A DNA stretch of 64,000 bases, taken from Salvia splendens (lineage: Eukaryota; Streptophyta; Magnoliopsida; Lamiales; Lamiaceae). The translations under genes were made by a program, and so were the position numbers. Of the stretch, positions 54,283 to 56,735 are shown in pieces. The first letter of the stretch is position 1; each line of letters starts with the position of its first letter. The DNA lies in contig NC_056051.1 in the NCBI RefSeq assembly GCF_004379255.2, forward strand, positions 25,785,267 through 25,849,266. The letters run 5' to 3'. The notes beneath the pieces were generated by a model. It worked only from the letters and a program-made list of their open reading frames with translations, was not told where the DNA came from and made no database searches.

Positions 54283-54585
54283 TGATACGATCCTATATCT
54301 TATTATATCTTTTGATTCACCAAATCCTTCCATATATTTGTTATCTTGGTCAATAAGTTAGGGTATAGTATTTGAGTATTATAAATAGGGATAAATGGTT
54401 ATTATTTGCATTCATTCAGTAAATCAATAAAATCATTGTTGGTCCAATAACGTGTTGAGAAATTCTCTTTTACTAAGATCTCGCGCTGCCCGACGGAGAG
54501 GAATTCCCGCGCACAGCCGGTTCTTTGCTACCGCCGATCCTTCGCTAGGACGCCGGAGAACGGGATACGACGTAGGGTCGTATCA
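54283..54585 (+). repeat. 5' LTR of the SufC-carrying element
   Basis: 303 bp; contains a TATA-like tataaata (54380-54387) and ends gggtcgtatca. Confidence 0.9.
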
Positions 54586-54610
54586 ATTGGTGCTTTCATC
54601 CTGTGTGCTC

Positions 54611-55123
54611 ATGAAACGATTTAACAACAACGGAAAGGCGGTCGGGGGCTCTTCACGCCCAGATTCGTTCCCGAATGGTGCATCGCGCCGTCAACAGCCT
54701 GTTGATCGTCGCAATTTTGGGAACTCGCATCAATCACAGTTGGAAGATGGGGAGTTCGAAGTTCGTCAACCGGAGGAGTTACATCTTGATGACTCGGTGA
54801 GTGGTAAGTTGGATCGTTTATTGGATCGCCTCGACAAGTTTGAGGTGTGGAGGGCCGACACAGATCGCCGCTTCCAATCTCTGGAACCGGTAATCTCTCG
54901 CGATGCAGAACCGCCGTCGGTTTTCGAGGATGGAGATGATTGGGGGGATAAGGGTTTTAGACGTACACGTTATGGTGACAGGGGAAATAATTTTCGAAAC
55001 CCTAGTGGGGGATTTCGGGACAGCCAACAGGCAGGGCGGGGAAGCCGCGGAGGCAGGGGCCGTCCGGGGTCTTGCTGGGACCCACCATGGACTCGTACCT
55101 GTTGGGACCCACCTGCCTATTGA
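54611..55123 (+). CDS. gag-like remnant of the SufC-carrying element
   Basis: ATG at 54611, shortly after the primer-binding site. 170 codons: Asn/Gly/Arg-rich start, an acidic segment (LEDGEFEVRQPEEL), a short coiled-coil-like stretch (KLDRLLDRLDKFEVWRADTD) and an Arg/Gly-rich tail (GRGSRGGRGR), ending at TGA 55121-55123. It resembles the amino-terminal, non-conserved part of gypsy gag; I see no capsid domain or zinc knuckle. The same frame continues open from 55124 to 56506 through the SufC segment. Confidence 0.6.
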   Translation: MKRFNNNGKAVGGSSRPDSFPNGASRRQQPVDRRNFGNSHQSQLEDGEFEVRQPEELHLDDSVSGKLDRLLDRLDKFEVWRADTDRRFQSLEPVISRDAEPPSVFEDGDDWGDKGFRRTRYGDRGNNFRNPSGGFRDSQQAGRGSRGGRGRPGSCWDPPWTRTCWDPPAY

Positions 55124-56506
55124 GAGACACCAAGGCAACACCCCTTCAACGAGGATCACGGGGGAAGACACTCGACGACATGGGACAGCCCTTGGGGGCG
55201 AGGCGATTCAGGAAGACAAAGTCCGCTGTTGTCGACAGCAACTACTGTGGCTTCACAGCCCCTGTTAGGGTTCAACGGGCGGTCGTCTAGGGCTACGCAT
55301 CAGCCGCTAAGTTCTGAGGCGTTGTGGTGGGATCGTTACGGATCCGGCGGCGAGGGAGTTCGGGGGAGACGCCCGACAGCATGGGACAACCCGCCGCAAA
55401 GGGTCGACGACCATACCGGGAGACTGGCGCCAACGTGGGAGACGGCAAGGGGCAGACATGAGGACGATCGCTATTCGGACCCGCCGCGGAGGATCGACGC
55501 GTCGGAACGGCGTGCGGCCATCGCACAACCACCGGCGCCGGCGGTAGCGTCAATACCGCGATTAGGGTTTGGCGACGATTCTTCAATTCATGGGCCACAA
55601 CAGGCAACCCAACCTGGTGCATCTTCAGGGGCCAGATACACGGTCAAGGGCGACGGGGATCGCGGCAAGCAGCCATCAGCTTCCGTCGCCATCGAGGCCC
55701 CTTCATCCTCGACCACTGACCTATTGCTTCAAGCCAAAGACCTCTCCGTTGTCATCGCCGAGTCCAAGCAGCCTATCCTCAAAGAGGTTAATCTTACCGT
55801 CCGCCATGGAGAGGTTCATGCTGTGATGGGGAAGAACGACTCAGGGAAAAGTACATTTGCAAAGGCCCTTGCTGGTCATCCAGATTATGAGGTTACAGGA
55901 GGAAGTGTAATGTACAAAGGGTTTGATCTGCGTGAGATGGAATCTGAGGAAAGAGCTACTGTTGGATTATTTATGAGCTTTCAATCATCAGTTGAAATTC
56001 CAGGTGTAAGCTATATTGACTTCTTAAATATGGCTTACAATGCTAGGAGGAGGGAACTTGGATTACCAGAGCTTGGTCCAATTGAGTTTTATGGCTACGT
56101 GGCACCTAAGCTTGAGCTCATCAATATGAAGACCGATTTTTTAAACAGATATGTGAATGAAGGTTTCAGCGGTGGAGAAAAAAGGCGCAATGACACGTCA
56201 TGTTTGAGCACTCTTGGAAGCATGGACAAGCTTTTCGTTTTGGGATGGAATTTTGCCGCCCACATTGGGTGTCCTTTGTTGTTTAATGATGGAGGAGATG
56301 AAGTGAGACGTTTAGTTGTTCGGTGTGTGTTTGATCCAGGAGGAGATGTCTCGCCAAAGTCGGCTTTCAACTCTCTTCGTTGCTTCGTGGTTTCCACCTT
56401 GAGGACAAGGTGGATTTTAACCGTGGGGGAGTTGATACGATCCTATATCTTATTATATCTTTTGATTCACCAAATCCTTCCATATATTTGTTATCTTGGT
56501 CAATAA
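55124..56506 (+). CDS. Chimeric ORF: gag-like linker fused to SufC fragment
   Basis: Open in the gag frame from the codon after the TGA at 55121 to TAA 56504-56506 inside the 3' LTR. The first ~185 codons are Arg/Gly/Pro-rich and element-like. From ~55677 to ~56192 the frame encodes the plastid SufC/ABCI6 (NAP7) ATPase: LLLQAKDLSVVIAESKQPIL, Walker A GKNDSGKST (usually GKNGSGKST), GHPDYEVTGGS, the Q-loop MSFQSSVEIPGV, NMKTDFLNR and the ABC signature FSGGEKRR. The match stops before Walker B and the H-loop, so the ATPase cannot work as an ABC protein. The last part is element sequence. No ATG opens this frame after the TGA before the SufC part; the first Met codons lie within SufC. Confidence 0.8.
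   Translation, partial: ETPRQHPFNEDHGGRHSTTWDSPWGRGDSGRQSPLLSTATTVASQPLLGFNGRSSRATHQPLSSEALWWDRYGSGGEGVRGRRPTAWDNPPQRVDDHTGRLAPTWETARGRHEDDRYSDPPRRIDASERRAAIAQPPAPAVASIPRLGFGDDSSIHGPQQATQPGASSGARYTVKGDGDRGKQPSASVAIEAPSSSTTDLLLQAKDLSVVIAESKQPILKEVNLTVRHGEVHAVMGKNDSGKSTFAKALAGHPDYEVTGGSVMYKGFDLREMESEERATVGLFMSFQSSVEIPGVSYIDFLNMAYNARRRELGLPELGPIEFYGYVAPKLELINMKTDFLNRYVNEGFSGGEKRRNDTSCLSTLGSMDKLFVLGWNFAAHIGCPLLFNDGGDEVRRLVVRCVFDPGGDVSPKSAFNSLRCFVVSTLRTRWILTVGELIRSYILLYLLIHQILPYICYLGQ
55677..56192 (+). pseudogene. Captured SufC (ABCI6) fragment, intronless
   Basis: About 170 codons covering the end of the transit peptide and the ABC core up to the signature motif. Plastid SufC is the soluble ATPase of the SufBCD scaffold that assembles iron-sulfur clusters. 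Continuous coding without introns points to capture from spliced mRNA, if the donor gene has introns in this interval. Several positions differ from the strongly conserved family pattern (GKNDSGKST, YNARRRELGLPELGPIEFYG), showing drift since capture. Confidence 0.85.
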
Positions 56507-56735
56507 GTTAGGGTATAGTATTTGAGTATTATAAATAGGGATAAATGGTTATTATTTGCATTCATTCAGTAAATCAATAAAATCATTGTTGGTCCAATAA
56601 CGTGTTGAGAAATTCTCTTTTACTAAGATCTCGCGCTGCCCGACGGAGAGGAATTCCCGCGCACAGCCGGTTCTTTGCTACCGCCGATCCTTCGCTAGGA
56701 CGCCGGAGAACGGGATACGACGTAGGGTCGTATCA
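56433..56735 (+). repeat. 3' LTR of the SufC-carrying element
   Basis: Matches the 5' LTR along its full 303 bp by eye. Confidence 0.9.

What the first reader, a model, noticed from the sequence alone, without database searches (positions are those of the whole stretch)
54283..56735. Retrotransposon that captured a piece of the plastid SufC (ABCI6) gene
A 2.45 kb element with 303-bp LTRs and TSD gaagt carries ~170 codons of the essential iron-sulfur assembly ATPase SufC between a gag remnant and the purine tract. It has no RT or integrase. The host segment is intronless, consistent with capture of spliced mRNA by template switching during reverse transcription. The LTRs show no difference by eye, so it moved very recently, probably in trans. 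Host-gene-carrying LTR elements are known in plants, but I do not know this combination.
Basis: partly seen in the sequence, partly recalled or inferred. Interest (0 to 1): 0.92.

Follow-up and report, generated by a model that had tools for sequence, protein, structure and literature searches.

The report
Retrotransposon carrying a SufC gene fragment
A short jumping element in scarlet sage (Salvia splendens) carries a broken piece of an essential chloroplast iron-sulfur gene that its family appears to have picked up once and then copied around the genome; gene theft of this kind is already known in plants, but here sister copies show several of its stages.

Summary
Window 54283-56735 is a non-autonomous LTR retrotransposon: 303-bp LTRs with 0 differences, TSD GAAGT, a gag-head frame, ~512 bp of plastid SufC (ABCI6) sequence, a ~230-bp tail and a purine tract; no capsid, protease, RT or integrase was found. 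It interrupts a C1-domain ORF. The host is Salvia splendens. A protein search lists eight S. splendens predicted proteins with the same gag-SufC fusion, on five contig lengths. All nine fusion sequences, window included, share one junction and group together (99/93) inside Salvia ABCI6: one capture, then retrotransposition. P0008, with the longest SufC, suggests that the first capture was longer and was trimmed later. The insertion is recent (below about 0.4 My from the LTRs); the capture is older. The SufC piece shows 14 residue changes against 2 in the host gene, has lost a P-loop glycine and lacks Walker B, so it should not be an ATPase. Capture from spliced mRNA is likely but only indirectly supported, because the host DNA could not be reached. 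It is a new member of a known kind (maize Bs1; [quoted passage not shown]

The parts
54278..54282 (.). target-site duplication GAAGT, left
54283..54585 (+). 5' LTR, 303 bp, TGATAC...GTATCA; TATAAATA at 54380, AATAAA at 54426
54586..54603 (+). candidate primer-binding site just inside the 5' LTR (tRNA not identified)
   Evidence: position only; inference
54611..55681 (+). gag-head reading frame from ATG 54611, interrupted once by TGA 55121-55123; resembles the region upstream of the capsid domain in Salvia Ty3/gypsy gag-pol proteins P0133 and P0134; has no capsid domain itself
55682..56193 (+). captured SufC/ABCI6 coding segment (host residues ~36-205), in frame with gag; P-loop glycine changed; ends just after the ABC signature, so no Walker B
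   Evidence: 5' edge, 3' edge from the alignment
56194..56422 (+). element tail of non-SufC sequence, shared with P0001 and P0005
56423..56432 (+). polypurine tract GTGGGGGAGT
56433..56735 (+). 3' LTR, identical to the 5' LTR
56736..56740 (.). target-site duplication GAAGT, right
53995..54282 (+). ORF with a C1_2 domain, interrupted by the element; with the flanks joined its frame stays open for 37 more codons

Best explanation
A small non-autonomous Ty3/gypsy-type family of Salvia splendens captured once, in sense and in frame with its gag head, part of an ABCI6 (plastid SufC) transcript. Most likely reverse transcriptase, working on a packaged element RNA, switched to a co-packaged ABCI6 mRNA and back (inferred). 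The chimera keeps LTRs, a purine tract and a presumed primer site, so it can be copied by the enzymes of an autonomous Ty3/gypsy relative (inferred). It spread to at least five loci, besides the window copy, which may be a sixth or an allele of one of them. One branch later lost the 3' part of SufC, and the SufC piece drifts under relaxed constraint. The window copy inserted recently into an ORF with a C1 domain (shown).
For: LTRs, TSD, purine tract. SufC identity. Eight S. splendens proteins, P0001-P0008, outrank every plain SufC among the 120 listed of 7319 hits. Nine of nine fusion sequences contain the junction RGKQPSA|SVAIE and lie on one side of a branch, 99/93, inside Salvia ABCI6. P0130, a gag-head protein without any Pfam domain, aligns to P0008 up to that very alanine, and likewise to P0001, which places the 5' breakpoint. 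The gag head resembles that of P0133 (S. splendens; capsid, protease, RT, RNase H, integrase zinc domain) and P0134 (S. hispanica). The window is contiguous at 55813|55814, where P0048 has a 35-residue insert compatible with a GT..AG intron. Of 16 residue differences between window and host P0009 over 157 positions, 14 are on the element side and 2 are private to P0009 (columns, sorted by hand; one-sided binomial 0.002).
Against: P0008 reads past SufC residue 233 into an unrelated tail rich in Tyr/Ile/Leu; if that were an ABCI6 intron, the source was unspliced RNA or DNA. No autonomous element with these LTRs was seen. P0133 and P0134 were found with another gag-head protein (P0121); the search with P0001 itself did not list P0134, which was within its length limits (P0133 was too long for it), and identity to the element head is 32-35% over 134 and 102 residues. 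The joined empty-site protein shows no further C1 domain: its one C1_2 match lies wholly in the left flank.
Confidence: 0.85

Rival explanations
1. Capture at the DNA level: a piece of the ABCI6 gene entered an integrated element by ectopic recombination or repair, or a processed SufC pseudogene inserted into one, and the result was then retrotransposed.
For: The odd P0008 tail could be intron or flank. Intron loss rests on one sesame gene model.
Against: Sense orientation, in-frame fusion and continuity over the putative intron site at 55813|55814 fit RNA-level capture better.
Confidence: 0.15
2. 3' transduction: an element beside the ABCI6 gene read through into it, and the read-through RNA was retrotransposed.
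For: Read-through transduction is described for retrotransposons (PMC13317346, passages).
Against: The SufC segment lies between the LTRs, with element tail and purine tract after it; simple 3' transduction would put it outside the 3' LTR.
Confidence: 0.05
3. The fusion frame is a functional gene (a domesticated gag-SufC protein) kept by selection.
For: An open frame of 622 codons in P0001; the 436-codon frame of the window exceeds all 1000 shuffles.
Against: Changed P-loop glycine in eight of nine fusion sequences, no Walker B in the window copy, 14 versus 2 substitutions against the host; a stop in the window copy. Protein databases list open frames preferentially, a bias.
Confidence: 0.04

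Closest known systems
Bs1 LTR retroelement of maize
   Same: LTR element carrying segments of host genes (one a plasma-membrane H+-ATPase) that form a chimeric ORF; as described in PMC13317346 (passages).
   Different: Bs1 carries segments of three host genes, in a grass; here one gene, plastid SufC, in a mint, with sister copies that suggest later trimming.
LTR-captured genes of rice and sorghum (Jiang & Ramachandran 2013, PMC3726574, abstract)
   Same: 672 and 1,343 genes captured by LTR elements; a higher percentage of the rice ones are pseudogenes under neutral selection.
   Different: A survey in two grasses; this is one case in Salvia, followed to its junction and phylogeny.
TR-GAG elements (PMC8704663, passages)
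   Same: Non-autonomous LTR elements with a gag ORF only; one was seen to transpose in Arabidopsis ddm1.
   Different: Here the gag capsid domain is absent and a host gene piece is present.
Template-switch chimeras in Triticeae (Sabot & Schulman 2007, PMC1950507, abstract)
   Different: There two element sequences fuse; here an element and a host gene.

Membership tests
LTR retrotransposon | paired LTRs in direct orientation with TG..CA ends | tested here: met
LTR retrotransposon | short target-site duplication | tested here: met
   GAAGT
LTR retrotransposon | polypurine tract before the 3' LTR | tested here: met
LTR retrotransposon | tRNA primer-binding site after the 5' LTR | tested here: inconclusive
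   sequence in the right place, tRNA not identified
autonomous Ty3/gypsy element | capsid, protease, RT, RNase H, integrase | tested here: not met
   above Pfam cut-off only ABC_tran in the two main sense frames; nothing in nine further ORFs
TR-GAG | ORF encoding a GAG protein as the only ORF | tested here: not met
   gag head only, no Retrotrans_gag or Ty3_capsid match
LTR element with captured host gene (Bs1-like) | host coding sequence between the LTRs, with the intact gene elsewhere in the genome | tested here: met
   P0009, S. splendens ABCI6, on a contig length (27,667,306) that none of the fusions has
LTR element with captured host gene (Bs1-like) | introns of the source gene absent from the captured copy | tested here: inconclusive
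SufC ATPase | complete ABC domain with Walker A, signature, Walker B | tested here: not met
   profile positions 1-161 of 243 only; P-loop glycine changed

The most novel reading that the evidence does not exclude
Transcripts of this family, carrying sense sequence of an essential plastid Fe-S gene at several genomic loci, feed back on the host ABCI6 gene (small RNAs against its mRNA, or a truncated SufC that titrates partners), so that silencing the element has a cost which shields it.
Probability: 0.04. Interest if true: 0.75.

Novelty: new member of a known kind. Interest (0 to 1): 0.36.

Why it matters
It is a clean, multi-stage example of host-gene capture by an LTR element outside the grasses: one 5' breakpoint, one origin, a copy with more SufC (P0008), shorter copies and one very recent insertion. 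It would let capture, decay and mobilisation be dated in one family. It also warns annotators: several S. splendens entries named as ABC transporter, ABCI6-like or RbsA-like (among P0001-P0008) contain transposon copies.

Tried and rejected
Searching the window's own genome for copies with the same LTRs and for the ABCI6 gene: the service did not answer at any of nine tries, so copy number and intron structure rest on predicted proteins. Plasmid collection: no match (it is a collection of plasmid records, so this says little). Papers: SufC with retrotransposon, 5 papers, none on this subject by title and opening of abstract; ABCI6 with exon, none; SufC, introns, Arabidopsis, NAP7, 3 listed, nothing on gene structure by title and opening of abstract. 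The idea that this LTR family captures many host genes (P0121 and P0123-P0126 join gag-head pieces to subtilase, helicase, ubiquitin hydrolase, E2 or FF-domain sequence) was set aside: by my reading the joins look like gene models that splice host exons to an element lying in or next to a gene; this was not tested on DNA. The LTR element at 42659-48158 in the window is probably not the helper of this one: its gag-pol is 37% identical to P0133, and the element studied here has no DNA match elsewhere in the window. I had planned to use the Pfam score of the joined flanks as support for a clean insertion; it is none, because the domain lies left of the join.

A bacterial promoter scan was not informative for a plant element.

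Full report
What is there. Window 54283-56735 is one complete LTR insertion. The LTRs are 303 bp each, identical (0 of 303), and bounded by GAAGT on both sides. The exact repeat appears 3 bases longer at its left edge because the purine tract and the duplication both end in AGT. Each LTR has a TATA-like box and an AATAAA. The interior holds a reading frame from ATG 54611 that would run into the 3' LTR (stop at 56504), broken by one TGA at 55121. Downstream of it the frame is open for 436 codons within the interior; the longest in 1000 mononucleotide shuffles is 218.

SufC. Residues 202-364 of the 55124 translation match TIGR01978 sufC, profile positions 1-161 of 243, E 3.9e-51, and E. coli SufC chains. 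Among the 120 best of 7319 hits, plain plant ABCI6 proteins follow the fusions: first the S. splendens gene itself (P0009), then two other Salvia species. The segment ends just after the signature motif, so Walker B and all beyond are missing, and a P-loop glycine is changed; that this abolishes ATPase activity is general knowledge of ABC proteins, not a test.

Host and sister copies. Over the 622 residues of P0001, the window frame differs at two places, one of them the stop. P0001-P0008 are all named Salvia splendens, and their longest contigs have five different lengths. P0001/P0003, P0004/P0006 and P0005/P0007 share a contig length and may be two annotations of one locus each, so I count at least five loci. 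The window copy differs from P0001-P0003, its nearest, by one residue in 157, so it is a further copy or an allele of one of them. All nine fusion sequences contain the same gag-SufC junction. In a 22-row tree (18 different rows) the nine lie on one side of a branch with support 99/93, within Salvia ABCI6. That P0008 branches first has support of only 81/75, but it alone of the nine keeps the P-loop glycine. The 120 listed hits hold no such fusion from another Salvia; these are predicted proteins only, so absence elsewhere is not shown.

Breakpoints. P0130, a gag-head protein of S. splendens with no Pfam domain, aligns to P0008 and to P0001 up to the alanine just before SVAIE; the host protein has QASVSIE there. 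The 5' breakpoint is thus at about 55681/55682. The 3' edge differs: the window, P0001 and P0005 leave SufC after host residue ~205, whereas P0008 continues to residue 233; in the other five of nine the gene model ends or splices away at or before this point. So the first capture was probably longer and was trimmed later; a second 3' switch is not excluded.

Spliced source. Among the 111 plain SufC proteins P0010-P0120 compared with P0009, one, P0048 (Sesamum calycinum), has a long insert inside the conserved domain: 35 residues at G-E|V-H-A, which can be read as a retained 105-nt GT..AG intron. The window reads GGAGAG|GTTCATG there without a break. This supports, but does not prove, that the source RNA was spliced. 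The tail of P0008 is unexplained and could speak against it.

Ages. With the rate of 1.3e-8 used for S. splendens LTRs (PMC8408255, passages), 0 differences in 303 bp gives an upper bound of about 0.38 My (three-over-n rule). The capture is older: 14 residue changes lie on the element side, against 2 private to P0009 (binomial 0.002). At that rate and without constraint this is on the order of a few million years, a rough guess without DNA. P0009 may not be the exact donor, as S. splendens is tetraploid.

Movement. No capsid, RT or integrase was found in the element. Gag-pol proteins with a similar gag head exist in S. splendens (P0133) and S. hispanica (P0134); they were found through another gag-head protein, P0121, and share 32-35% with the element's head. 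They show the lineage, not the helper. Transposition of a gag-only element has been observed in Arabidopsis (PMC8704663, passages).

Target. The element interrupts an ORF with a C1_2 domain. With the flanks joined, the frame stays open for 37 more codons, which fits a clean insertion into an exon but is not far from chance for that length; the C1_2 match itself lies in the left flank.

Verdict. [quoted passage not shown] One paper search aimed at a SufC capture found no report of one (5 papers, titles and openings of abstracts seen).

Noticed in passing
window 42659-48158 (-): A Ty3/gypsy LTR element with 524-bp identical LTRs, GGAGG on both sides, and ORFs with gag, RT and integrase domains; gag-pol 37% identical to P0133.
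   Followed up: partly
window 57329-62827 (+): Two long adjacent ORFs, gag then RT/RNase H/integrase with an extra RNase H-like domain (RVT_3), of another LTR element about 0.6 kb downstream.
   Followed up: partly
window 9731-17207 (+): Three repeats at ~2.7-3.1 kb spacing, each with a long ORF; the two that were scanned are cytochrome P450: a tandem gene cluster.
   Followed up: partly
window 48142-49590 (-): LRR-rich ORF with a 144-bp periodicity (six copies) next to the 42659-48158 element.
   Followed up: no
window 37623-38538: Tandem array with 22-bp steps.
   Followed up: no
window 30393-33395 (+): PPR protein with a DYW deaminase domain.
   Followed up: no
proteins P0002, P0006, P0123-P0125: S. 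splendens gene models that join pieces of this element family to host exons (for example a TatA-type gene in P0006): exonisation or annotation artefact.
   Followed up: partly
protein P0008 C-terminus: After SufC residue 233 the predicted protein turns into a Tyr/Ile/Leu-rich tail, perhaps a read-through intron or flank.
   Followed up: partly
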